NCBI GenBank assembly: GCA_009761415.1
Contig: QUOL01000002.1
Span: forward strand, 1,736,001 to 1,800,000
Length of the DNA stretch: 64,000 bases
Direction: 5' to 3'
Origin: Sarcomyxa edulis
Taxonomy: Eukaryota > Basidiomycota > Agaricomycetes > Agaricales > Mycenaceae
The notes beneath the pieces were generated by a model. That model had not been told where the DNA came from. It made no database searches and saw only the letters and a program-made list of their open reading frames with translations. The position numbers and the translations under genes are program-made. This document shows positions 30,449 to 55,154 of the stretch, in pieces (position 1 is the stretch's first letter; every line of letters starts with the position of its first letter).

Positions 30449-32368
30449 ATGGCTGACCATGATGAAGGACTGAAGCTAGTCGCATCCCATACCCTCTACA
30501 CCCTATTCGACTCTGGTAGAGTTTCGACTCCAATCGCCTCTATGGACCTCCTCACGAGGGTAATTGCTTCCAAACCTCCAACCGGCCTCTTCCCAACTTC
30601 ATCAACTCCTCCTAGGTTTCGATTGACTGACCTGGCACGTTTTGAATCCATACTGGAGGCCCTCTCGCAATCTTGGGATCGTGGGGCTATAACGCTTTCG
30701 CGCGATGACGGAGAACTCTCGGTACTAGACGTTACACTAGGTGCTAGCGCTGTACCAAAGCCAACTGGACTTGAGGGACTATTACCACGCAAGAGAAAAA
30801 GAGTGGTAGACGAGGATGCAGACTCGGCAGCAGGGGACGATGACGGAGACGAACAATCATTCGAAGATGTTCCTCCTCGCAGTGCTTCGACTCTTGCTAG
30901 TCTGAGCAAGGAACTCAAGGAAGTATACGCAATATTGCAGAAAAGTACTGCAAAAGGTCGTCTGCTAGCTGAGCAGGTATTTCTCAACGTTCCATTCTAG
31001 TCGTGTCCCTCTAATGATTTGCGGTAGTATCACTCGGCGGAAGAGCATTTCGAGCCTATATGCCCCCACATCACCAAAGACGAGTGTTCAAAGGCCCGAA
31101 ACCTCAAACTATCTGAATCTACACCATCCACTTCTACTGCAGCACCAGCCGGCATCTGCGATCTCATACATTTCCGCCCCCTGCTTCGACCACACACAGA
31201 CCCTTCTCTCGGGCATTGTTCCTACCTCAATACATGTTATTCTGAACCGACATATGCTCAATCTCCGTCGATTCCACCATTCCCAGGTTCCGTTCACAGT
31301 CACGGACAGGCTCCTCCAAATTCTCGGGGTCCCGTATCTTTACCCTCTGGTCTTGGTGCAGGCGGCAGAGGCAAAGAGAAGGCTCCTTGTAGATATCTCC
31401 ATTACGAGGTCGACTGGGATGGTGGAGATGGAGATCGGACGCGCCCGAATGGCAAGGGAAGAGATCTCGGCAAAAAATCCAAGACTTACAAGTTGGGTAT
31501 AGGAATGGGGCCGGATGGGAAGAACATGCAAGTCGTAAGATAGTCCTGATTTACCCCATCTTTCGCTCAATCCTGATCACCTACATAGCTACCTCCACAA
31601 TGGATAAACTGTGATCTACGAAGGTTCGATTACTCTGTCTTGGGTAAATTCCATGTCATCATGGCCGACCCACCATGGGATATCCACATGAGTGTACGTA
31701 TTCTCCTGACCTCTCCAGCCTATAACTTACATTCGTAAACTAGCTTCCATACGGCACGATGACCGATGACGAAATGCGTGCCATGCCCATCCCCACTCTC
31801 CAAGACGAAGGGATGCTCTTCCTTTGGGTCACTGGTCGAGCCATGGAAGTTGGTCGCGAATGCCTACGTGTATGGGGATACACACGCGTGGACGAAGTCG
31901 TCTGGGTCAAAACGAACCAACTTCAACGCGTCATTCGAACAGGAAGGACCGGGCATTGGCTGAATCATACCAAAGAGCATATGCTCGTTGGTGTCAAGAC
32001 CGTCACAGACGGTCCGGGGGGTGCTCTGAAGTTCCCTTCGTGGGCTAATCGAGGATTAGATACGGATGTTATCGTTTCCGAGGTGAGGGAGACTAGTAGG
32101 AAGCCTGATGAGGTTTATGGGATGATCGAGCGGATGTGTCCTGGTGGTAGGAAGATTGAGATTTTCGGAAGGAAACATAATACGCGACCGGGATGGTTGA
32201 CGCTCGGAAATCAACTGGGACCTGATCAAATTTATGAGGAGGACTTGAAGGAACGGATCAAAGCGAGGTGAGCCCTACATACTCTCCATGTTCTTCTTTG
32301 TATACTGACCATCATGTAGGTATCCTGAACGTACTATCAACACACCTGCAAGTGGAAGCCATCCCTGA
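30449..32368 (+). CDS. IME4: METTL3/IME4-type mRNA N6-adenosine methyltransferase (MT-A70)
   Basis: The ATG at 30449 opens exon 1 (to 30976), which joins at 31028; further introns lie near 31540-31589, 31695-31742 and 32270-32318. The N-terminal third is helical with a LLPRKRKR nuclear signal. A middle Cys/His region ([25 protein letters not shown]) resembles the paired CCCH zinc fingers of METTL3. The catalytic domain contains [20 protein letters not shown], then the SAM-binding DPPW motif (~residue 372), [49 protein letters not shown] and [19 protein letters not shown]. This is METTL3, not METTL14 or METTL4, because DPPW and the gate-loop residues are intact. It writes m6A in mRNA; in yeast the Ime4 enzyme promotes meiosis. 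End: GSHP, TGA at 32366. Confidence 0.9.
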
Positions 32369-36304: not shown

Positions 36305-37507
36305 TTAAGCACCAGTGATTCCACCAGTCGCACCAGTGTTCGCAATGCGCGACGTGGCATCCGCCGCAGTAGAGCAAGTGATCGACTGCACACGAATATG
36401 ATCAGTATGGTGGTCAAGCATAGAAAGATGCTGAGTTGCACTCACTGTTCCAGCCGAGTTGACCAAAGGCAAGGCGAAGCATTGAGTGCCACCCGCGCAT
36501 CCAGTGACGACGAAGCTTGAACCAACGCATTGTGCGAATTGTCCGTTGATGCAGGCATTCTCACCGGCAGTGCAAGAAGAGCTGGTCGTGAGAGTGGCGA
36601 ATTTGGCGTTCAGGGCTTGTGCGTCCTTGCCGTTTTCTGTTTGGAAACAGTGTTAGCTTTGTAGAAGGACATGGAGAGATGAAGACTTACGGAGAGCAAA
36701 CGATGAGGTAGATACAACGACGGGAGGGGCAGCAGCAGCAGTTGTTACAGCCGGGGGAGCTGCTGCAGCAGTGGTAGTTACGGATCCAACATTGTTAACG
36801 GCTGCAGGCGGTGCAGAAGCCGCGGTACTCGCGCCACTGAACCCATTAAGAAGTGATCAATATACGAGAAACCCCTTTCAGCTGGAATACACTCACCCAA
36901 CAACGCCGGGGCTGCTGACCAGTGTGTTCAATTGAACACCATCTGGAACTGGACCATCGGTCTTCGCAGGACACGAACCCGGTGGGCTAACGGCAGTAAG
37001 TCCAAGAGGGACGTTACCGGTTTGGTCACCAGAGAATTTCGCGAAATTCGAGGAGGCAAATTGACAATGGAACAAGCCGTTGAGCTCCGCGTTCTTCGGT
37101 GCAGTCTGGCAGTAAGGCACTTGGAGGGAGTCGGGTGCGTTACGGGGTTGCTGGACGAAGAGCTGGGTGAGGCGGATCATCTCAGGGTCCGACTTGAGTG
37201 TTTTGGCAAGGTCGATCATCTGGTCGGCGGCGTTTTGTTGGTCGCAGTTACCACCGGCTGCTAAGAGGGAACCGAAGGCTATTTGGGAGATGGGGTTGCA
37301 TTGCTGGGCTCCGCCTGCTGCAAGCTGTGTCGAATCAATGAGCATGTATAATAAATGTCGGCGTTATTGAGAGTAACTTACACAAGCCTGTTCCCAATCA
37401 GCCGTCGCGTCGGCAATGACTTGAGCTATCCTCTTTTGAACAGGCATAGCAGAAGCGAGACCACTGAGAACAGCAGAGGCGGCAAAGAGAGTGCTGATTT
37501 GGACCAT
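36305..37507 (-). CDS. Secreted protein with a CBM19-like cysteine domain
   Basis: The ATG at 37507 gives a signal peptide (MVQISTLFAASAVLSGLASA) and a KR site (MPVQKR) that could be a propeptide cleavage. Exons then encode a Cys-poor helical region (NPISQIAFGSLLAAGGNCDQ, DLAKTLKSDPEMIRL), an Ala/Pro/Val/Thr-rich linker (TTTAAAAPPAVTTAAAAPPV) and a C-terminal module CTAGENACINGQFAQCVGSS followed by CAGGTQCFALPLVNSAG and ITC. The Cys spacing with FALPLVNxxGTSITC resembles chitin-binding CBM19 modules. I infer an extracellular or wall-associated protein, possibly chitin binding. It ends GGITGA, TAA at 36305. Confidence 0.76.
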
Positions 37508-38671
37508 TGTGAAAACGATTTTTGAAAAGAAAAGAACAAATAAAAGATGTGTTGAAGTGAAAGTTGAGTGCGATGAAAAGGACTGAAGGGAGCACCTGGC
37601 TCGAAGAAAGAAAGGATGGAGGGGAAGAAAGAGAATGATGAAAGAGAGCCACAAGTGGAGGATTTTATAACCATTCATCTGTGGCTAGGTCATCGGAAGC
37701 GAGCAGATCGTTTTTGATGGGGATCATGCGGCATCAAGGCCGGGGCAGCAAAATGTGGTATTCTCGGCGTTTCATATGATGTTGGAGCAGTAACGATGCT
37801 GCCCTTGTTCCGAGTCGTCCTGGTGCAAGAGCAACTAGGGCAAAATGGGCCGCGTAGATGGAGGTCTGGCCGCGGAGACGATATCCATCATATCACATGA
37901 TCAATGTACTCATGATGGTCAATTGAGAAAATCAATCCGTTGCACAGGGCACTGCTGTTGCCGCAAACGCACTGATGTCTCGAACATCGCCTTGTCGCGA
38001 TGTTTATACGCGCACATGGGCCAGACGAGAGATTGTCGAACAGTGTTGAACATGGCTGTCCACTTGAGTTCGTGTGCCGTTGTTCGCAGTTGAGCTGACT
38101 CGAAGCTACGGCGCAGTATCACGTAGTTGAGTGAGAGAGAAGTCATAGATACGGTCGGTCGTATGTTGGGCAGACGATTGTATGGGAATTTCCCGATCTG
38201 TGAGACTTTGCGCAACTCTTGATCCTAGCATCTTTTCTCTTCGGTATTTACGCAGAGCGTGTCGATGTCCTAATCGTTCCCAGCAATGCAATAACCCGAG
38301 GCTCCAGTACTTCTGGACGTCCTGGGTTGATCATTGTAATCAGATTCGAGCGTGATCAGAGCACAGCGATAGACTTGGATGGGAAAACTATAGGGAGTCT
38401 TCATGCGGTACCTAAAAACAGTTCAGTGATACCAGGTGAAAGCGTGAACAGATCCTGAGCCTTGCAATTGTCTGATCCATGGGTCCCCGCGGGTCCAACG
38501 TTGTCGAGGTTGTGAGCAAGTCGAGTCGTCCAATGTCCACTGGCAGAAATTTGAGACTCGAGGCGGCAGTGACAGAGAGCTTGGCAAGGGTTCTCAAAAT
38601 AAACAGCGTTTCCAACTCCGCCTCCACTTCAACTTCTAGTTTCTGCAAGTCATCGTCTGTATCATCAAGCC
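37508..38671. other. 1.16 kb gap with one unresolved coding-like stretch
   Basis: The left part is the promoter of the secreted-protein gene. Around 38420-38670 the minus strand is open and reads like protein (LDDTDDDLQKLEVEVEAELE, LAKLSVTAASSLKFLPVDIG, RGPMDQTIA), but I cannot find an in-frame ATG or a clean splice, and it abuts the CWC21 start. Nothing else is supported. Confidence 0.35.
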
Positions 38672-42557: not shown

Positions 42558-42960
42558 ACAAAGGGCCAAAGCGCTACACAGACGCGCAGGTCATATATAT
42601 TCCCGCCTGTATTTCATATCTCGGGCGGATGGAATAGCTGTCCGGGTAGATCTCGCGCCAGGATGCAGGATTTAAATCATTCATACATACAAGACAAGAC
42701 AAGTTCCTCGATCGCCGCTGTCCTTTCCTTTCCTTTTGTCGACGGGACGTCTCGTGCCACTTTACTTCAAATGGAAAGTCCGAACGCTTTCTCCACGCGG
42801 CAAATGTGGACGTTTGGAAAGCGTCAGATGGGACGTCCCGATCGCTTTCCGAGTCCCGTCCCCGCTTTACAGCTGTGCATTGGCCACCAGGGACCAAGCC
42901 CAAGCCCAAGCTGGACGGGTCGTAGAACAAAGCGGTGGCATACCAGGAGGGGTATAAATA
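42558..42960 (+). promoter_or_regulatory. Pheromone-gene promoter: ACAAAG motifs and TATA box
   Basis: ACAAAGGG occurs at 42558-42565 and a second ACAAAG at 42927-42932. TATAAATA lies at 42953-42960, about 140 bases before the pheromone start. In Ustilago, pheromone genes carry ACAAAGGGA response elements bound by the HMG-box factor Prf1; the match here is to the core only. The remainder of 42108-43101 has no supported gene. It has several GGGACG/CGTCCC half-sites around 42740-42850. Confidence 0.45.
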
Positions 42961-43101
42961 TGAGGGCAACCTGAGACATAATTCTTCAGTTTCCAACCCC
43001 CACTTCGTCTTCGTCTTCATATCTGCTCACTCACCTAAAGCTACATCCTCCCTGCCTTACCTCTTTAAACCAAACCAAACCAACCTCAATCAGAATCACA
43101 G

Positions 43102-43242
43102 ATGGACGCTTTTACTACCATCGACATCACTATCGTCTCCTCCGCCGCTACTGCTGATGTGGAGAAAGGCGTCACGAGCACCATCCCAGTCAACGCAGAG
43201 AATGGTGGATCCGGTAGTAACGCCTACTGTGTCGTTGCGTGA
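43102..43242 (+). CDS. Lipopeptide mating pheromone precursor
   Basis: A single-exon 46-residue frame begins MDAFTTIDITIVSS and ends NGGSGSNAYCVVA. The C-terminal CVVA is a CaaX box (Cys, two aliphatics, Ala), the signal for farnesylation, trimming and carboxymethylation. Length, MDxF start, lack of a signal peptide and a small Gly/Ser/Asn segment before the Cys match basidiomycete B-locus pheromone precursors. Those are cut internally, usually after a charged pair; here the charged residue ahead of the tail is the Glu in AEN. The mature peptide would be about 10 residues. It should be exported by a Ste6-type transporter and sensed by a Ste3-type receptor, neither of which is in the window. 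Receptor-unlinked pheromone genes also exist. Confidence 0.86.
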   Translation: MDAFTTIDITIVSSAATADVEKGVTSTIPVNAENGGSGSNAYCVVA

Positions 43243-43512
43243 GCTACAAGATGCACTTGCTTTTATGAAATAATCGTTATACGTGAGTGGTCATTATCCT
43301 CACCTTGTCTCTCTGTACTAACGTGAGACCTACAGGATTCCATGCCATGCCATGATATTTATGATTCTTTTTTTTCGTTCGTTTCAGCCAACAATTGGAG
43401 GCATTTGATGTGGAAGTTTTGGGGTTTATAGTTTCTTTGTGTGGTGTTTCTTTACTTTTGAATGCTTTATGAACTTTATGATTTAGTATTGCGATCTTTG
43501 AGAGAGATGATC

Positions 43513-43554
43513 CACCGGGGGCAAAGTGATCCGCACCTGGGTGGAATGCACCCA
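43513..43554. repeat. Left terminal inverted repeat
   Basis: Begins CACCGGGGGCAAAG and ends TGGAATGCACCCA. Pairs with 49406-49447 on the other strand with mismatches at positions 14 and 20. It is followed to about 43615 by five further GCACCC units in 10-12 base spacing, probably transposase-binding sites. Confidence 0.82.
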
Positions 43555-43952
43555 GCCGCGCACCCAATATGCACCCAGCTATGCACCCAACCGCGCACCC
43601 GGCCACGCACCCACCATGCTGTCGGATCGGATTTCGGAACATTTTTTTTGGGTGCGCTCGCCAGCGCTTCTCTCGAGCTCTTCGTCATGTTGCTTGAACT
43701 CCTTACCACAGAGTCTATGTATTACTCGAAGAACAACACACCTGGTAGTACTTAGTGAGTTTTCTATCTGTATTTTACTGCCACAAACCGATGTTCACAC
43801 ATGATGAAGGCATATTACTTAGAAAATTAATATCAGTTTTTCACGAGATCACCTCGCGTCGTGTTGCGTCAATCCGAGAACAAAGAACAAAGAACATATA
43901 TTTCTCATTCAGTCCCCCCTCGAAGCTCATACCCCTCCCACCTTTAGCTGCT

Positions 43953-45586: not shown

Positions 45587-48500
45587 CTACTTTCTTCCAC
45601 GGTTTAGTGCCCAATTGATAACCAAAAACTCCTGCCCAATTCCATAAGTTCCTGCTGGACGCCGGTAAACAGCAAGATGTGTTACTATATCTGCCAATTC
45701 TACTACTTGTAGTAGATCTGATGGAGCTGTTTCTACAAGTTGGATTTGTAACCTAGCCAAAGTCTTGTATGGTCCTTTATACGCTTGGGCCAAAGGTTTG
45801 TGGGGGTGGATTAGAATGAAAGATCGAAGCACTCCTTCGAGAGGGACTTGGAGAATTGAGTTGATATATCCAGTATGAAGAGTAGACTGATGGTTATGTG
45901 TTATGGAAAATTGAATAGCACTGTTCCCCTGATGAGATCGGAAACAGCTATATGTGTGCCGATTGAAAACCAATTGAGTTGGGGTAAGAGCACATGGTGG
46001 AAGAACCAAAGCACCAGGAGGATGAGGGAGATTTTCATAATGACGCCACAAAGGATTTTTGGACTGTAGATAACGAAGTAAAACGGTGTACTGAATAGGG
46101 TCCAGATCAGTTCCCTTAGCAAGAATATTGGTGACTTCAGTTGTTGTAAGCCGTGGATTGAATGGAGTGTTCTGATATATATCGGGAGGGTGAATAACCT
46201 TTATCAGGTCATCCATAGCAGTGGAAGTGTCTTTCCGATCACGAAGTTGTGCATCCAATCGAGCTTTCCGGCACATTTGCTGGAACATAGTGAGATCAAT
46301 CTCATCTATATCAATAAATTCAATCAACAAGTGTAGGAAACCAAGTGAAAGATACCCATACTCATATGTTTATTAGTACTGATTTTCTGGAACATGCCAT
46401 TGACCCCTTCACCAGGAAACTCACTCAAAGCAGCAAGTGGACCCCATCGTTTTAGTAGTTCCCCGTTGTGCATAGCATAATGGTGGTTGGGAAGTGAGTG
46501 GGCATTTCCAAAAAGGTTTGGAATTGCACGACGGTAGCTGAGATAATGAAAAGTATAGGCATCTGCCTCGTCATTGGAAGTAGAGAATGAGGAGATGATA
46601 TTGGTTGCAGCCACCAGATGGTACAGATTCTCGAATAATTCCTGATTCCGAGTGGATCTGTGAGTTTCAGAATACCAGAACTCTGGAAGGATAATGGGAA
46701 AAATGATGGAGAACAGAATAAGCTGTTCATTAGCTTTGAGTTTTCCATGAGATGACTCTCCAAGATTTGTTGGAGGACGATTGACATGTGTAGGAAGCTG
46801 AATATTCTCGATACAAGTATGAATAGCGGCTAGTTGCTCTTTGTTGAATTCGAATAGAGGTGGTGTGGAACCAGAGTTGCCAGCTGCAGGATTATCTCCA
46901 CTGCTCGATGATTCATGCCCAGACCCAATATCACTGTCCATTTCTACATCTGTGATAGGGGGGGAGTCTCCAGATTGTGATTGTGGTGTGGGAGTGACTG
47001 TACGGCTGGATGATCCCCAACGAAATCGATTGTGGTATTCGGATTTGCTCCACTCGCTTTCTGAAGTGTCAGATACATCTCTGAAGATATCTGCAGATAA
47101 TGATTCTGCATCTGAACCATTGCCACTATGTTCAGGCTGATCATCCTCCACCTCTACACCTTTTTCTATCTTTCTCCCAAGTCCCAGAAACCGGCGTAGA
47201 TGTGTTTGAAGTACACCTTCCAACCAATTGTGCATAAAACCAAGAATGAGGGAGTCTACAGGTTCCCAGTAGGGTAGATCATGCAAAGGAGTCCATCGTA
47301 CACCGGTGGTGGTTGCCAGTTTATTTTGACCAGTAATGGTATGAGTATGTTTCCATTCTCTGGCTTGGACTCGAACTTCAGCATTACTCCGCTTGGTCCA
47401 GGATGCAATATCCAGGACACCTACTCTGTCTTTTGTACAATCACAAAAAGAACAGAATTTCATCGCACTTGTGCCTAAGAATCCAGCAGTCTTCCGTATG
47501 GCCTCCAGATCTGCAATCAGAAGGAGGAGAAGAACTTGGATAAGAATTCCCTGTGCATATCGATGAGTCGGAAGGGTTTTTCCCAAGTGGAACTCCCGAA
47601 GCATATGGATGAGTGGTAGAAGAATGTTGCAAATGGTATAGATGTCTGGAGCCTTGGGACCAGGAATAACACCAACGAAAAATAGGTTCTCGGGTAAGAA
47701 CCGAACCTCGTACGGGAGACTTAAACAATATAGAAATATTGCTCCACAGGAAATAACTTTCCCTATATGAATAGATTGATTAGAATAGTAGTGAACAAAT
47801 CAAAAAGAAACTCTATACCTGCAATTTTATTTGTCAATGGATTGAACCAGTCAATATAGATTCCAAAAACCAATTTCCCCCGTGTATGCCGGAAATCTCC
47901 AAGAGATCGCCATACAGGACTATCCCAAGTACTGTGCATTGTACCATGAGATGGAATATAGGTATAGCACTGATCCAGAAGATTTTCAATGTCCGGGCGT
48001 CCAAGAAAATATCGAAGCCAATTTTCGAATGATTGTGTGCGGTATAAACGAGCTGGAACCCGTTTAGGCCCATGACGGGTATTCCGGTTAGTCCATAGAT
48101 TTGTGCCACATACTCGAGTTCGCTGATTTTTTTTGGCAGTGCACCGTTCTGGAATATTGTTTCCTGCATATAATGCAAAACATTTTGGACAGCAAACAGT
48201 ACGGATGATCTCTGGAGTTAAATTCTGGCGGTGATATGCGGTTCGAACATCATGTGGGATGTTGAGAGAAGGAATTATAATGGAAATGCCAGTGAGAGTC
48301 AAGATCATTCCAAAAAGTTGGAAAGCAACACCAAGGATGATTGCGAGGGATTGGAGGACAATATTAGCAGTTGTACGGCTGGTTCGGCCATGGAGAGTAA
48401 GCCAAACTGCAAGGATCCGGCACATTTCTTCAATTTGAGCGATAGCTCTATTGATATCTGAAAATCAGGTCAGTCTATCTTCTGGTTTGATATAATTTTG

Positions 48501-48735: not shown

Positions 48736-49405
48736 CTTGAGTCTTTGAATCTAACACTTCAGTGCTGAGAATAGAGATGCAATACAGATCAAAAAGATCA
48801 TAGAGCTTATACCTGTTATCAACTCTGATTGTGGTATGATCTACACCTCAACAGCCTAATAGATTATTTGATTCAGTGAATCAAGGTAGTGGATGTAAAG
48901 ACCTTTGAGATCTTACAATGGATTTCGTGTTTTGTTGATCAGACGATAGCCTTCTGCTCTTTAGGACTATTATGCCGTAGATTGTTGTAAGTGCAAGATT
49001 GGTAAAGGTTGCTAACTTCAGTAGAGCACAAGAGTAAGGAAATGCCAGCGAGGATGTGGTGTGAACACAGATGCGAAGATGCGATACGGCGACTCGGAGT
49101 TCTCTATGTGACATGTCACTTGGTGTGACTGTCACTACGCCCAGTACCGAGTCACCCGGGTGAAGAACATGAGATCAACTAAGTCTGTCTACGATAGATT
49201 TGAGAATCAACTATTGATATAAACAGGGAGCTACTACTGTGAACTGTTCAAGTCCAAGTCTAAGTACTGCCCGTCGCCCGGCGAGACAACAAAAGGTCAA
49301 GGAATGTCGGTCGCCGGTTGCGGATTTGCCGGTGGCCGCGTGTTGGCCGCGTGGCGTTGAGGTGCTTGGCTGGGTGTGCTGTTGGGTGCGACAAAGGTGC
49401 GCTGG
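48736..49405. other. Right subterminal region of the DNA transposon
   Basis: No gene. It holds the transposase promoter and, nearer the end, GGGTGC-type repeats (49370-49415) mirroring those at the left end. A perfect 12-base palindrome GTGACATGTCAC lies at 49108-49119. Confidence 0.45.
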
Positions 49406-49447
49406 TGGGTGCATTCCACCCAGGTGCCGATCATTTTGCCCCCGGTG
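49406..49447. repeat. Right terminal inverted repeat
   Basis: Reverse complement begins CACCGGGGGCAAAATGATC. It matches the left end over 42 bases with two differences. The TSD of the adjacent retrotransposon starts two bases after it. Confidence 0.82.
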
Positions 49448-49880: not shown

Positions 49881-49894
49881 TCACCCCCCTTCTA
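49881..49894 (-). promoter_or_regulatory. Polypurine tract
   Basis: On the element's sense strand AGAAGGGGGGTGA sits directly before the 3' LTR, the expected plus-strand primer site. Confidence 0.75.
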
Positions 49895-51142
49895 GGTCGA
49901 ATCGTCCTCGATATGACTACGATTAAGTGGTATCGACCAAGTCGGGATGTGTTTTGTCCTTTCCTTCTCCAAGACTGAGATTGTGGCATCAGTGTAGGTT
50001 TCGAGAGGTCTAAACGGCAGTTGAGTGAAGAGTGCAGCGTTAATCCGTCGCGGTGCATTGGGGTGCAACTGATGGAACTGTCGAACCAATCTTTTTGCAC
50101 GATCAACGTTATCCTCCGGTTCCCAGGTGTTGTGTTCGTCGGTGTACCCCTTCCACTTGATCAAATAGTACAGCTTGCCTCGTTCCAACTTAGAGTTCAA
50201 GATTTCTTCAACTTCGTATCGGGGTTCACCTTCGACCCGGATTGGAGGGGGAGGATCGGATCTTTGGCCTTCGATCTGGGGTGGAACGTAGCGTCGCAGT
50301 TTGGAGACATTGAATACGGGGTGTAGCTTGTTGTAACGCTTTGGCAACTTGAGTTTATACGCGTTGGGCGACACAACTTTAGTGATTTCGAATGGTCCGT
50401 CCCGCTTGTGACTTAGCTTTTTGGAGGGGCGGTCTGTCTTGATGTCGCTCAAGTCAAGGTACACCTTGTCTCCAACCTTGTACTGTGGGGTTTCGATCCG
50501 ACCTTGATCTGCAAATCTCTTCATCTCATCCGCCGCCTTATTTAGAGCCGCCTCTACTTCCTCATGGACCTTTTTCATGCGTAGTGCAAAGTCCTCAGCA
50601 GCTTCTGACTTGACATTTCTTTTCGGCTCGACCCCCATCCTTGGATGTCTTCCAGTGTTGGCGTAGAAGGGGGAGACTTGAGTCGACGACGAAACTCGGT
50701 TGTTAAGCGCAAACTCGGCGATGGCTAGCCAATCAGCCCAATCATTTTGCCTATGATTGATGAACAAGCGAAGATATTGTTCAATTTCCTGGTTGGTTCT
50801 TTCCGTTTGTCCATCACTTTGAGGGTGGTAGGCTGTTGACAGTTTGCGTTTGACACCGAGTAGCGTGTGAAGGTCTTTCATGAGCTGCGAGGCAAATTGC
50901 GGTCCGCGGTCCGAGATGACTGAGTCCGGGAGACCGTGGTACCTCCAGACGTGATCTCTGTAAAGCGCGGCTAGTCCAAGGGACGACAATTCTTCGGAGC
51001 ATGGGATGATGTGGGTCATTTTGGTGAATCTGTCAACGACCACGAGAATTGCATCGTTCCCTTGGCTATCTGGCAGTCCAGTGATCAAATCTACGGAGAT
51101 ATCTGTCCACGGCGCCGAAGGGGTGCGGTTAGGCATGAGCTT
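49892..51142 (-). CDS. Chromovirus Pol, integrase core and chromodomain (after the in-frame stop)
   Basis: This frame continues the upstream pol frame directly after a TGA. It contains the integrase catalytic residues: VDLITGLPDSQGNDAILVV (first Asp), SDRGPQFASQLM (second Asp) and DGQTERTNQEIEQYL (Glu). A GPY/F-like region (HKRDGPFEITKVVSPNAYKL) and a chromodomain (YEVEEILNSKLERGKLYYLI, then KWKGYTDEHNTWEPEDNV) follow. Chromodomains steer integration toward marked chromatin. If the stop is real, this part is made only by readthrough. Confidence 0.9.
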   Translation of the reverse strand, partial: KLMPNRTPSAPWTDISVDLITGLPDSQGNDAILVVVDRFTKMTHIIPCSEELSSLGLAALYRDHVWRYHGLPDSVISDRGPQFASQLMKDLHTLLGVKRKLSTAYHPQSDGQTERTNQEIEQYLRLFINHRQNDWADWLAIAEFALNNRVSSSTQVSPFYANTGRHPRMGVEPKRNVKSEAAEDFALRMKKVHEEVEAALNKAADEMKRFADQGRIETPQYKVGDKVYLDLSDIKTDRPSKKLSHKRDGPFEITKVVSPNAYKLKLPKRYNKLHPVFNVSKLRRYVPPQIEGQRSDPPPPIRVEGEPRYEVEEILNSKLERGKLYYLIKWKGYTDEHNTWEPEDNVDRAKRLVRQFHQLHPNAPRRINAALFTQLPFRPLETYTDATISVLEKERTKHIPTWSIPLNRSHIEDDST

Positions 51143-53757
51143 TCATATTGGTGGGGCAGGGAATGTCTTTGTTCGATTACATTTGTCGCAACCTTCGATG
51201 TACTGGGTTACGAATTTAGTCATTCCTGGCCACCAGTAGTTCCTGCTCATAAGCTCTAGGGTCTTCCACTTTCCAGGGTGTCCCACGACTGCAGAATCGT
51301 GATGTAATTCCACAATCTTTCGCCGTAGTTCTTCCTTCTTAGGGACGTAGACTTTTCCCCGGAATAGTATCAACCCTTGCTCTTCTGACCACTCTTCTTC
51401 TCTGAGACGTCTGACAGGGGAATGTTTGAGTTCTTCAACAGCTTTGACCACCGACTCATCATAGTCTTTGCACTTTCTGATGTCTGATAAAATGCTAGAC
51501 TCGTTGTTTTCGATCAAAACGTGGCCCTGTTGAAGCGCTCGGATTCGGAAAAACTCTGGTTTAAGAAGGATTTGGTTCTGGTTATCCTCTTCCCCCTTGT
51601 CATGATCTGCTCGTCTCGAGAGATAATCTGGTTTGGCCGATGCAGACCCTGGTCGGTGTTTCAGCACGAAATCAAATCGCGATAGGTAAAGTGCCCATCT
51701 CGCTTGTCGTCGATTCAAGTTCCGTGCTGTTTTGAAGTATTCCAGGTTCTTATGGTCGCTCCAGATTACCACCGGGTGGTCAGCCCCTTCGAGGTAGTGT
51801 CGCCATTCTTCCAAACATCGAATGATGGCTAGCATTTCTTTATCGTGTATATCATAGTTGCGTTGCACATCATTCAATCCTTTGGAGAGATAGGCGCACG
51901 GTCTCCATTTACCATCATCACAGAGCATGCTTAGAATACCCCCAGTCGCATGACCTGAGGAGTCGGCCTCAATCTTCATCTGCTTTGTCGGGTCAGGATA
52001 TACGAGGACAGGCTCGGAGGAGAATCTTCTCTTTAACTCGTCGAATGCCTTTTGTTGTTCCTCCGTCCATTTCCATGGTGCATCCTTCCGAGTGAGCTGA
52101 TGAAGGGGTTTTGCCACTTTAGAGAATCCCTCTATGAAGCGCCGGTAGAAGTTAGCAAAGCCGAGAAAGGCTTGCAGCTCCTTGACTTTTGTTGGTACCG
52201 GCCACTTCATGACTGCTTCGACTTTCTTGGGATCCATTCTAATGTGGTCACCCGAGATGATGAGACCGAGGTATTCCAGCTCTGTTTTCTCAAACTCACA
52301 TTTTTCGGGTTTAAGGAATAGATCATTGTCTCGTAGGATTTCAAGAACTTGTTTGACTATTTTCCTGTGTTCTTCCAGTGTCTTGGTGAAGATCAGGATG
52401 TCGTCCATGTAAACAATGACTACTCCTTTATCGATCAGCGGTTTGAGAATGTGGTTCATCATGGTCTGGAAGGAAGCCGGCGAATTCATCAGTCCAAAGA
52501 ACATAACGGTTGGTTCGAACATCCCTCTGTTGGTTTTGAAGGCTGCTTTCCACTCATCCCCTTCCTTGATGCGCAAATTGTTGTATCCCCACCGTAGGTC
52601 TAATTTGGTGAAGATCTTTGCGTTTTTAAGTTTATCAACAAGTTCGGGGATTAGGGGTAGTGGGTAAGCGTTCTTGACTGTGTGGGAGTTCAGATGCCGA
52701 TAGTCTTGAACCGGGCGATTCGTACCGTCTTTCTTCTTCACGAAGAAGAAGGGAGCCGCTTGGGGAGACTTCGAGGGTCGGATATATCCTTTGCGTAGGT
52801 TCTCGTCGATGAATTCGTCGAGTTCCTTTTGTTCTTTTGGTGACAGAGGGTACAGTTTAGGGTTTTGAGGGATAAAGGTGTCTTTCAGATCTATGGGATG
52901 GTCCCAAGGTCGTCGTTCAGGGAGTCGTTCCGACGCCTTCTTTTCGAACAGTTCTAAGAATTCATGATACTGTTCGGGGACTATGGTTTCGGGTTTAGGT
53001 TTAGATTGAAAGACCCCTGCGTCACCAGCAAAGAATATCCGTTCCGTTGGAATTTCTTCATACTCGTCGTCTTCTTTATGAGCCCAAGGATCATACCACG
53101 TGTGGTAGATGGCTTCTTCGTCTTCACCTTCTTCATCTTCGTTGACCATGGTGGGGAATGGGGTCTTAGCTTTGGCTTTTGCCTTGCGGCGTACCTTAGC
53201 GTCGTACCCACATTCTTTTGGACACCTAGTCATCTCCACTTCACCCTTTTCCCAGTCTATTTCCGGGTTGTGTTTCTTCAACCAGGAGTGTCCGATAATA
53301 ACCGCCATCTTTCCAAGGTTGGTGATCGCAAAAGTAGCACGTTCCTTATGCCCCTTATAGTTCAGGATCATGTCTACTTCTTCTGTGATCGACCCTCCTT
53401 CGTTCAGGGTTCCATCTACATTGTATACTTGAATGGGTCTTTTCAGTCGTCGGGTTGCTAGCCCATTGCCTTTTGCAAATTCTTTATCCATAAACAATGT
53501 AGTGGCCCCTGAATCCAGCAACGCATCAATGTTGATCGCACGATGAGTGTCAAGAGTTCTAAGACCAACGTTCATAGAAACGTGTGTCTTAAGGTTGAGG
53601 GTTCTGACATAATGTTTTTCCACAGGGGGTTTCGATTCGTGAGCGGGGGAAACAACTTTATTTTCTTCAAAATGTACATGTTTTTCTATTCTAGAATCGG
53701 AACCCTTGGTAGCGGCAATCGAGTTTGTGGAAGTTACTGATTGCCGTTTTGAAAACC
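51143..53757 (-). CDS. Chromovirus Pol: protease, reverse transcriptase, RNase H, integrase zinc finger
   Basis: The frame is open from the gag end at 53757 down to a TGA at 51143-51145, in the -1 frame relative to gag. It shows the protease site ALLDSGATTLFM, RT motifs (RPVQDYRHLN, KLDLRWGYNNLRIK, FGLMNSPASFQ, IVYMDDILIF, EYLGLIIS), RNase H (KIEADSSGHATGG, IHDKEMLAI, SDHKNLEYF) and the integrase HHCC finger (LHHDSAVVGHPG to CDKCNRTK). All catalytic signatures are intact. Expression is probably by -1 frameshifting from gag. A highly acidic linker (NEDEEGEDEE) follows the protease. Confidence 0.94.
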
Positions 53758-54723
53758 CTCTTCCTTTCGGAAGTACTCTCTCAACTCGTCAAACGTCATG
53801 CTTCTGATGTCGGCATAGGTACAGTTACGAGCGATGTGTCCTAGCCGTTGGCAACGGAAGCATTTGATAGGTGGACGTTTGCCGGCGCGATCCACATCCA
53901 TGGCGTCTGGGTCCCTTTGCCTTGGCGCGTCGGGCTGACGTTGAGGTGGTACAACTGGGGCTGGAGGCGGAGCTACTGGTTTGTCTCGACGAGGTTGTGT
54001 TCTGGATGTGTCGTTCCAGACGTTCTTGGCTTTCTCGTTGTAGCGAATGCGTTGATTGTCCAGCTTTAGCACCCATTCGTACCAGCCAGCCAGGGTGTTT
54101 GGCATAGCAGGTAATGCGTAGACGCGTTCTCGAAGCCGATGGTTTAGACCCGTTTCGAACTTTTCAATCAACGCTACCTCATTGTACCCAGTACGTGGGG
54201 CGATCGATGCAAAAGCCCGGACGTACTCGTCGGCGGTCTGGCTGCCCTGGAACAACTTGCTCATGTCAGTCTGAGCCGTATCTTGGGGATTGGGATCGGC
54301 AAAAGACTTTCTGAACTTTTGGATAAAGTCATTCCAGCTGGTGAAGGGAGCCTGTCGCCGGAGAGAGGTCATAGGATCTATTGTTCCAACCTGACTGATA
54401 GCCGTTAACGCCAAATCCACAAAGGTTTGTGCGGTTCCCCCCTGGATGTATGAGAGCGCAAACGAGATTTTGGTATCATCGTTTGGGAACTCAATGGCTC
54501 GACCGTTCATATAGTTGATGTTTTCGTTGATGAACGCGTCAGCCTGGGCTTTGTCTCCAGAGAAAATACGAGGGGGATTGATTTTAGGAAGTCGGGGATG
54601 AGGGGCAGGAAGTGGTTGCGGCATGGGTTGTGGCTGGGGTTGGGCAAGCTGTTGGTTCAGCAGGTTGGTGAGGGCGGCGATTTGGGTTTCGAGTTGCGTA
54701 ATGCGGTCATCAGGGTCCTCCAT
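53734..54723 (-). CDS. Chromovirus Gag
   Basis: The ATG at 54723 starts MEDPDDRITQLETQIAALTN, a short coiled coil. A Pro/Gln-rich stretch and a capsid-like region follow (FSGDKAQADAFINENINYM, FALSYIQGGTAQTFVDLAL, TSWNDFIQKFRKSFADPNPQ). It ends with one zinc knuckle, CFRCQRLGHIARNC, that would bind the RNA. About 329 residues, uninterrupted. It forms the virus-like particle in which reverse transcription takes place. Confidence 0.94.
   Translation of the reverse strand: MEDPDDRITQLETQIAALTNLLNQQLAQPQPQPMPQPLPAPHPRLPKINPPRIFSGDKAQADAFINENINYMNGRAIEFPNDDTKISFALSYIQGGTAQTFVDLALTAISQVGTIDPMTSLRRQAPFTSWNDFIQKFRKSFADPNPQDTAQTDMSKLFQGSQTADEYVRAFASIAPRTGYNEVALIEKFETGLNHRLRERVYALPAMPNTLAGWYEWVLKLDNQRIRYNEKAKNVWNDTSRTQPRRDKPVAPPPAPVVPPQRQPDAPRQRDPDAMDVDRAGKRPPIKCFRCQRLGHIARNCTYADIRSMTFDELREYFRKEEGFQNGNQ
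53752..53758 (-). promoter_or_regulatory. Candidate -1 ribosomal frameshift heptamer
   Basis: Near the gag end the sense strand reads GGGTTTT, in register as G GGT TTT of the gag frame, fitting X XXY YYZ. Slipping back one base here enters the open pol frame before the gag stop at 53734. Confidence 0.5.
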
Positions 54724-55154
54724 GGTAGTAGCAAGAGGAGATGCGAGGTGGGAAGGAGTTATGGAAAGGTGGGGAGGTTACTACAGACACGATCGAATGC
54801 GTGATACTAAACAGGTCCCCGTTGGTTAGACGGATCAACCCAACCGGATAGTATGCACGAGCGAAAACAATATGAGTGTAGCGCGGTATGCGTAAGGCGA
54901 GGTGCCGTTAGCTTGTGTTCTGTTGCTACTCAGACAATATCCTTCTTCTCTTCCAAAAGGACTATTGCGCGGTTAAGCCTTGGCGACTACTGCAGATCTG
55001 AAGTCGGGCTCAACGTTACTTCAGATTATGCTTGTCAGCTGAGTTGAGTGGAACACAAGTTCTTGATGGCGAGGTAAAAGGTAGTTAGTAATGTGAATGG
55101 AAAGAGGGAATGGAGGGGCGCAGCGTGTATTTCAGGATTAGGGCGTCGTAGGGT

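What the first reader, a model, noticed from the sequence alone, without database searches (positions are those of the whole stretch)
43102..43242. Mating pheromone precursor with CVVA CaaX box
Seen directly: a 46-codon frame starting MDAF and ending in a CaaX box after a Gly/Ser/Asn-rich tail. Established: this is the layout of basidiomycete B-mating-type lipopeptide pheromones. Such genes are usually missed by annotation. No receptor is in the window, so it may be a receptor-unlinked pheromone or the edge of a larger cluster.
Basis: partly seen in the sequence, partly recalled or inferred. Interest (0 to 1): 0.85.

Follow-up and report, generated by a model that had tools for sequence, protein, structure and literature searches.

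The report
Stray mushroom pheromone gene, non-mating-type kind
This tiny gene of a mushroom-type fungus very probably makes a fatty peptide signal of a known but little-studied class that lies outside the mating-type locus; its family shows two features that deserve tests: precursors that carry the signal twice, and a conserved motif after the gene's stop that would be completed by splicing.

Summary
The 46-codon frame 43102-43242 (+) ends in CVVA, passes the Pfam fungal pheromone cut-off when scanned alone (23.7 vs 22 bits), and has two conserved paralogues on other contigs and many relatives in mushroom-forming fungi. It is not a chance frame.

The genome has a separate B-mating-type-like cluster on contig C37: four receptors and four other CaaX frames. 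The window gene is on C12, where the STE3 search found nothing. [quoted passage not shown] So: a new member of a known kind, probably not deciding mating type. Its receptor is unknown; STE3-like loci without a pheromone neighbour are candidates.

Two additions. (1) All three paralogues have a predicted 3'UTR intron; its exon flanks, once joined, read AATCGTTWTACGATT, a 6-bp stem. The donor-side motif was found only at these three genes. (2) By a motif count, 88 of 145 retrieved relatives carry the core twice and none three times (sampling biased). My paper searches listed no account of this in mushrooms.

The parts
43102..43242 (+). Open reading frame of the pheromone-type precursor, 46 aa plus stop
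   Evidence: PF08015 23.7 bits, cut-off 22
43204..43230 (+). Codons 35-43, GGSGSNAYC: likely core of the mature peptide (true N-terminus unknown)
   Evidence: Most conserved part of the family; processing inferred from the class
43228..43239 (+). CVVA CaaX box
   Evidence: 79 of 85 relatives end in CVVA and 5 in CVIA
42953..42958 (+). TATAAA, 149 bases upstream of the ATG
   Evidence: also TATAAA at -119 in the C39 paralogue; the C10 paralogue has no exact match. Consensus match only
43272..43282 (+). 3'UTR exon element AATCGTTATAC before the predicted splice donor
   Evidence: Same in C39, one base different in C10; pattern AATCGTTNTACGTGAGT with one mismatch allowed found at these 3 genes only
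43283..43335 (+). Predicted 53-base 3'UTR intron (GTGAGT...CTAAC...CAG)
   Evidence: prediction only. 3'UTR introns are reported by EST for Agaricus bisporus genes of this class (PMC8305134). A second possible acceptor lies at 43387
43336..43339 (+). GATT after the predicted acceptor; joined to the donor exon it completes the inverted repeat AATCGT-TAT-ACGATT
   Evidence: GATT in all three paralogues; 3 of 209 candidate introns show such a junction stem, these three

Best explanation
The window carries one of three dispersed genes for a non-mating-type pheromone-like lipopeptide in a basidiomycete genome. Shown: the frame, its homology to PF08015 precursors, two paralogues on other contigs, no STE3 match on its contig, and a separate B-locus-like cluster with different pheromone frames. 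Inferred from the class: the precursor is cut near the acidic AEN site, farnesylated on the CVVA cysteine, trimmed, methylated and exported as a peptide of about 9-12 residues ending GGSGSNAYC. Most likely function, not shown (I give this step alone about 0.45): a conserved signal independent of mating type, read by STE3-like receptors outside the mating-type set (candidates C37:424-428 kb and C23:1.05 Mb) or setting a basal tone of the pheromone pathway. The confidence below is for the identity as a gene of this class.
For: PF08015 above cut-off for the window frame, both paralogues and P0001. Paralogues 75% and 52% identical; dN 0.20 and dS 0.75 for window vs C39 over 40 codons. 85 relatives by profile at E <= 10, 84 of them with Cys fourth from the end. 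All 26 STE3 matches on C37 and C23; four receptors interleaved with four CaaX frames on C37, those pheromones only 23-31% identical to the window's. The window core resembles the published non-mating-type consensus GGGSGNGAYC (C. cinerea) and GGGSGNNAYC (L. bicolor), and the Agaricus genes of the class are scattered and have 3'UTR introns (PMC8305134 section 3.5), as predicted for all three genes here. Pleurotus relatives P0068 (PC15) and P0074 (tag PC9H, taken from recall as strain PC9) have the same last 19 residues, although PC9 and PC15 are mating-compatible (PMC13108863 passages). ICMT and prenyltransferase domains are present in the genome.
Against: No expression, peptide or receptor data. 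The charged pair reported for processing is 'EN' here, with only one charged residue. The six-frame score was below cut-off (19.6). Allelic constancy could not be tested in this species, and I could not tell whether the Pleurotus genes lie inside matB. The C. cinerea relative P0081 has only E = 0.65, and P0068 and P0074 have 1.5e-3 and 1.1e-2. TATA boxes and candidate 3'UTR introns are not special to this class: B2 and B3 have the former, B3 and B4 the latter. The ICMT family also rings in prokaryote controls.
Confidence: 0.85

Rival explanations
1. A B-mating-type pheromone that left the locus and still decides compatibility.
For: Same precursor layout; CVVA also ends two C37 pheromone frames.
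Against: No STE3 match on C12; core unlike the C37 pheromones; near-identical class present in many species and published as non-mating-type. Three unlinked copies would make a poor compatibility switch (inference).
Confidence: 0.05
2. A decoy or attenuator: the peptide is made and competes for, or desensitises, pheromone receptors rather than activating one of its own.
For: Receptor unlinked and core conserved. PMC8305134 passages note that a non-mating-type receptor in Cryptococcus competes for signalling.
Against: No direct evidence either way.
Confidence: 0.06
3. A farnesylated small protein with a role that is not intercellular signalling.
For: Nothing here shows export.
Against: Match to PF08015, conserved acidic residue before the Gly-rich core and conserved MD[SA]F start as in pheromone precursors.
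Confidence: 0.035
4. A chance open reading frame.
For: Loose CaaX frames are common by chance: 2.45 expected, 4 seen.
Against: Paralogues, dN below dS, family profile and conserved 3'UTR element.
Confidence: 0.005

Closest known systems
[quoted passage not shown]
   Same: Short precursor, MD[SA]F start, Gly-rich core ending in YC, CaaX box, dispersed copies, 3'UTR intron (by EST in Agaricus, predicted here).
   Different: Core is GGSGSNAYC rather than GGGSGN[GN]AYC; three copies found here. The conserved splice-junction element is described here for this genome only.
B-mating-type lipopeptide pheromones (C37 cluster of this genome; Rhizopogon, Flammulina, Hypsizygus papers, passages)
   Same: Precursor layout and CaaX box.
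   Different: Not linked to a receptor; core 23-31% precursor identity to the four C37 frames.
Repeat-bearing CaaX precursors: Trichoderma HPP1 (PMC3068285, abstract and outline seen); Rhodosporidium rhodotorucine A precursors (recalled)
   Same: Internal copies of a CaaX-like core, as in the two-core relatives found here.
   Different: The window gene has one core. Its two-core relatives have two, lie in mushroom-forming fungi where named, and were not tested for Kex2 processing.

Membership tests
Fungal lipopeptide pheromone precursor (PF08015) | Match to the curated profile | tested here: met
   23.7 bits, cut-off 22, for the frame alone; 19.6 in the six-frame genome scan
Fungal lipopeptide pheromone precursor (PF08015) | C-terminal CaaX box, 40-100 aa, MD[SA]F-like start | tested here: met
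   CVVA, 46 aa, MDAF; length range from PMC5100862 passages, start motif from PMC8305134 section 3.5
Fungal lipopeptide pheromone precursor (PF08015) | Charged dipeptide 10-15 residues before the C-terminus | tested here: inconclusive
   Window has EN, C39 ED, C10 EES; published examples are ER, ED, EH, EE, DE and others
Fungal lipopeptide pheromone precursor (PF08015) | Farnesylation, export and receptor activation | not testable with these tools
   Only presence of ICMT and prenyltransferase domains in the genome was checked
[quoted passage not shown]
   All 26 STE3 matches on C37 and C23; the gene is at least 1.1 Mb from either end of C12
[quoted passage not shown]
   GGSGSNAYC, GGSGSNTYC, SGSGSNTYC on three contigs; published consensus
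[quoted passage not shown]
   Only one genome of this species held; Pleurotus P0068 and P0074 are an indirect hint
B-mating-type pheromone | Linkage to STE3 receptor genes | tested here: not met
   No STE3 match on C12
B-mating-type pheromone | Allelic specificity tied to B type | not testable with these tools
   One haplotype held

The most novel reading that the evidence does not exclude
The family is a deeply conserved lipopeptide signal of mushroom-forming fungi, independent of mating type, read by the STE3-like receptors that lack a neighbouring pheromone. Its output is controlled in two unrecognised ways: precursors that have doubled the peptide, so that an internal YCVV-x core must be cut out before it can be farnesylated, and a 3'UTR stem-loop that exists only after the 3'UTR intron has been removed.
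Probability: 0.25. Interest if true: 0.72.

Novelty: new member of a known kind. Interest (0 to 1): 0.4.

Why it matters
[quoted passage not shown] This gene, its two paralogues and the 145 relatives retrieved give defined candidate ligands with a conserved core, so the question can be tested with a few synthetic lipopeptides. If the two-core precursors are processed at both cores, that would need excision of an internal CaaX core, a step I know only from a few other fungi.

Tried and rejected
Chance frame: rejected by homology, not by the CaaX box. Edge of a receptor cluster: rejected. More paralogues: the exact pattern for Y-C-V-V-A-stop gave six places (one match in the backward control): three are this family, one is the C37 pheromone at 386725, and two (C1, C17) have a stop directly before the motif. 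The PF08015 scan at E <= 10 gave four places, the same three plus C37:386725. Duplication of a whole segment: among about 20 kb around each copy, window and C39 share the gene and its 3' side only, window and C10 only an unrelated 26-base match, C39 and C10 nothing at DNA level.

Pheromone-response motif: ACAAAG or its complement occurs upstream of the window gene and of C10 but not within 700 bases of C39, so I draw nothing from it. The joined string AATCGTTNTACGATT occurs unspliced at two other places in the genome. The donor-side pattern gave three matches and its backward control one. Folding of the joined UTRs gave z-scores 0.51, -0.41 and -1.73, so the UTRs as a whole are not unusually stable; the stem bases do not vary among the three, so covariation is silent. 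Rfam: no match in 42600-43700. DNA of relatives was not obtained: scans of viral and prokaryote contigs confirmed none, so the 3'UTR element is untested outside this genome. The species was not identified, and the STE3 loci were not placed in a tree for want of references.

Full report
WHAT IS THERE. The 46-codon frame at 43102-43242 (+) is as described. The window is G000:C12:1736001-1800000 of a 35.65 Mb genome in 40 contigs. That it is a basidiomycete, probably a mushroom-forming one, is inferred from its receptor and pheromone genes; the species was not identified. CaaX endings alone are weak evidence: 60 random sequences with the same dinucleotide content averaged 2.45 loose and 0.15 strict CaaX frames per window against 4 and 1 seen, and none of the 60 had a strict one with an MD[AST]F start.

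HOMOLOGY. Scanned alone, the frame scores 23.7 bits against PF08015 (cut-off 22); the six-frame genome scan gave it 19.6. Two paralogues lie on other contigs: C39:185171-185293 (-), 40 aa, and C10:124601-124729 (+), 42 aa. A single-sequence search found one relative, P0001. A profile of these four found 85 at E <= 10. A profile of 22 two-core relatives found 132 at E <= 1, with only the 7983 best candidates scored and 120 listed. Together 145 distinct proteins were retrieved. In the first set 84 of 85 have Cys fourth from the end, 79 as CVVA and 5 as CVIA. Names given in the two tables include Hebeloma, Hypholoma, Laccaria, Sphagnurus, Pleurotus, Coprinopsis, Crassisporium, Serpula, and Dendrothele, Stygiomarasmius, Tricholomella, Tricholoma, Collybia, Pholiota, Gymnopilus, Hypsizygus and Dentipellis. 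That Serpula is in Boletales and Dentipellis in Russulales is recalled; the Dentipellis protein runs on past the core and does not end in a CaaX box. Window against C39 gives dN 0.20 and dS 0.75 (40 codons), C39 against C10 dN 0.32 and dS 1.86 (39 codons), window against C10 dN 0.49 with dS beyond estimation (42 codons). So the copies are old and constrained; the values are rough at this length.

WHERE THE RECEPTORS ARE. PF02076 gives 26 exon-level matches, all on C37 and C23. On C37 four receptor loci (377-389 kb) interleave with four CaaX frames (379124, 382574, 386725, 390015), the layout of a B mating-type locus. Two more loci lie at 424-428 kb, the second without a match to the C-terminal part of the profile, and one at C23:1.05 Mb. 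Among the CaaX frames in C37 366-436 kb and C23 1042-1062 kb, none near these three starts MD.F. The window gene lies at least 1.1 Mb from either end of C12. The C37 pheromone frames are 23-31% identical to it and score 16.7, 16.0, 14.4 and nothing against PF08015, all below the cut-off.

WHAT IS KNOWN. PMC8305134 (section 3.5 read whole; [quoted passage not shown] cinerea (GGGSGNGAYC) and L. bicolor (GGGSGNNAYC), and at least three expressed with an intron in the 3'UTR by EST. It says that the function of non-mating-type STE3-like receptors is unknown. PMC4101180 (passages) reports four similar precursors in Pycnoporus cinnabarinus. The relatives P0081 (C. cinerea, E = 0.65) and P0048 (L. bicolor, E = 8e-7) differ from those strings by one residue each. 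The window gene therefore falls in a published class.

3'UTR ELEMENT. After the stop all three paralogues share AATCGTTWTAC before GTGAGT, and GATT after the likely acceptor CAG. Predicted introns are 53, 69 and 59 bases; other acceptors are possible. The donor-side pattern, one mismatch allowed, was found at these three places only, with one match for the backward control. Joined, the junction reads AATCGTTWTACGATT, a 6-bp inverted repeat with a 3-base loop whose centre is the only variable base; the stem appears in the predicted fold of all three. Of 209 candidate introns in the 194 kb examined (window and the C37, C23, C39 and C10 tiles), three have such a stem in that register: these three, against a naive expectation of 0.05. 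The three are related genes, so this is one event, not three. Against a functional stem: z-scores of the joined UTRs are 0.51, -0.41 and -1.73, stem bases do not vary, and the conservation could serve a linear protein site or splicing. The intron is predicted, not observed.

TWO-CORE PRECURSORS. Counting C[VIA][VIA]x, 88 of 145 relatives have two cores and 57 one; none has three. The second profile was built from two-core proteins, so the share is biased upward; in the first set a slightly different count gave 44 of 85. There the two 9-residue cores agree at 7.95 positions on average, 22 of 44 pairs perfectly, and the residue after the internal box is His 21, Gln 9, Ala 5, Arg 4, Lys 3, Asn 1, Val 1. 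Some entries are truncated, extended or odd (P0067, P0092, P0129, P0130, P0137, P0140) and stayed in the counts. Named two-core owners include Hebeloma, Hypholoma, Sphagnurus, Dendrothele, Stygiomarasmius, Pholiota, Tricholomella, Tricholoma, Collybia and Coprinopsis marcescibilis. Ten paper searches listed no paper on this in mushrooms by title or abstract start; supplements were not readable, and the published precursors of up to 54 aa (Agaricus) and 65 aa (Pycnoporus) may include such forms. Trichoderma HPP1 has three copies of a CaaX-like motif (PMC3068285, abstract).

VERDICT. [quoted passage not shown] Its role as a mating-type-independent signal, and its receptor, are inference (about 0.45). 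The two-core relatives and the splice-junction element are the parts most worth following.

Noticed in passing
P0002-P0145: Many relatives carry two near-identical peptide cores in one precursor, each with YCVV-x; none of 145 has three by the motif count.
   Followed up: partly
window 43272-43339; C39:185104-185120; C10:124780-124796: Conserved exon bases around a predicted 3'UTR intron form a 6-bp inverted repeat only when joined.
   Followed up: partly
window 36305-37679 and C37:374362-375742: A 1.4 kb stretch, 76% identical, lies both about 5.4 kb before the window pheromone gene and just beside the C37 receptor cluster; order and orientation relative to the pheromones differ. Its two frames tested have no Pfam match.
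   Followed up: partly
window 43513-43599 and 49361-49447: Inverted 87-base arms, 79% complementary, starting about 270 bases after the pheromone stop; related sequence occurs at nine other reported places, in pairs of opposite strand about 0.5 kb apart on C2, C7, C8 and C9, like a short inverted-repeat transposon.
   Followed up: partly
window 49892-54777 (-): Long frames of a retroelement; the frame 51143-53788 has reverse transcriptase, RNase H and integrase zinc-binding matches. Only listed.
   Followed up: no
window 45587-48464 (-): Three long frames inside the inverted arms with no Pfam match at E <= 1.
   Followed up: no
window 31744-32271 (+): MT-A70 methyltransferase domain, 170.9 bits.
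   Followed up: no
C10:124601-124729 and P0008: The C10 paralogue aligns best with the Serpula lacrymans peptide P0008, while the window and C39 copies align best with P0001, hinting at two old subfamilies.
   Followed up: no
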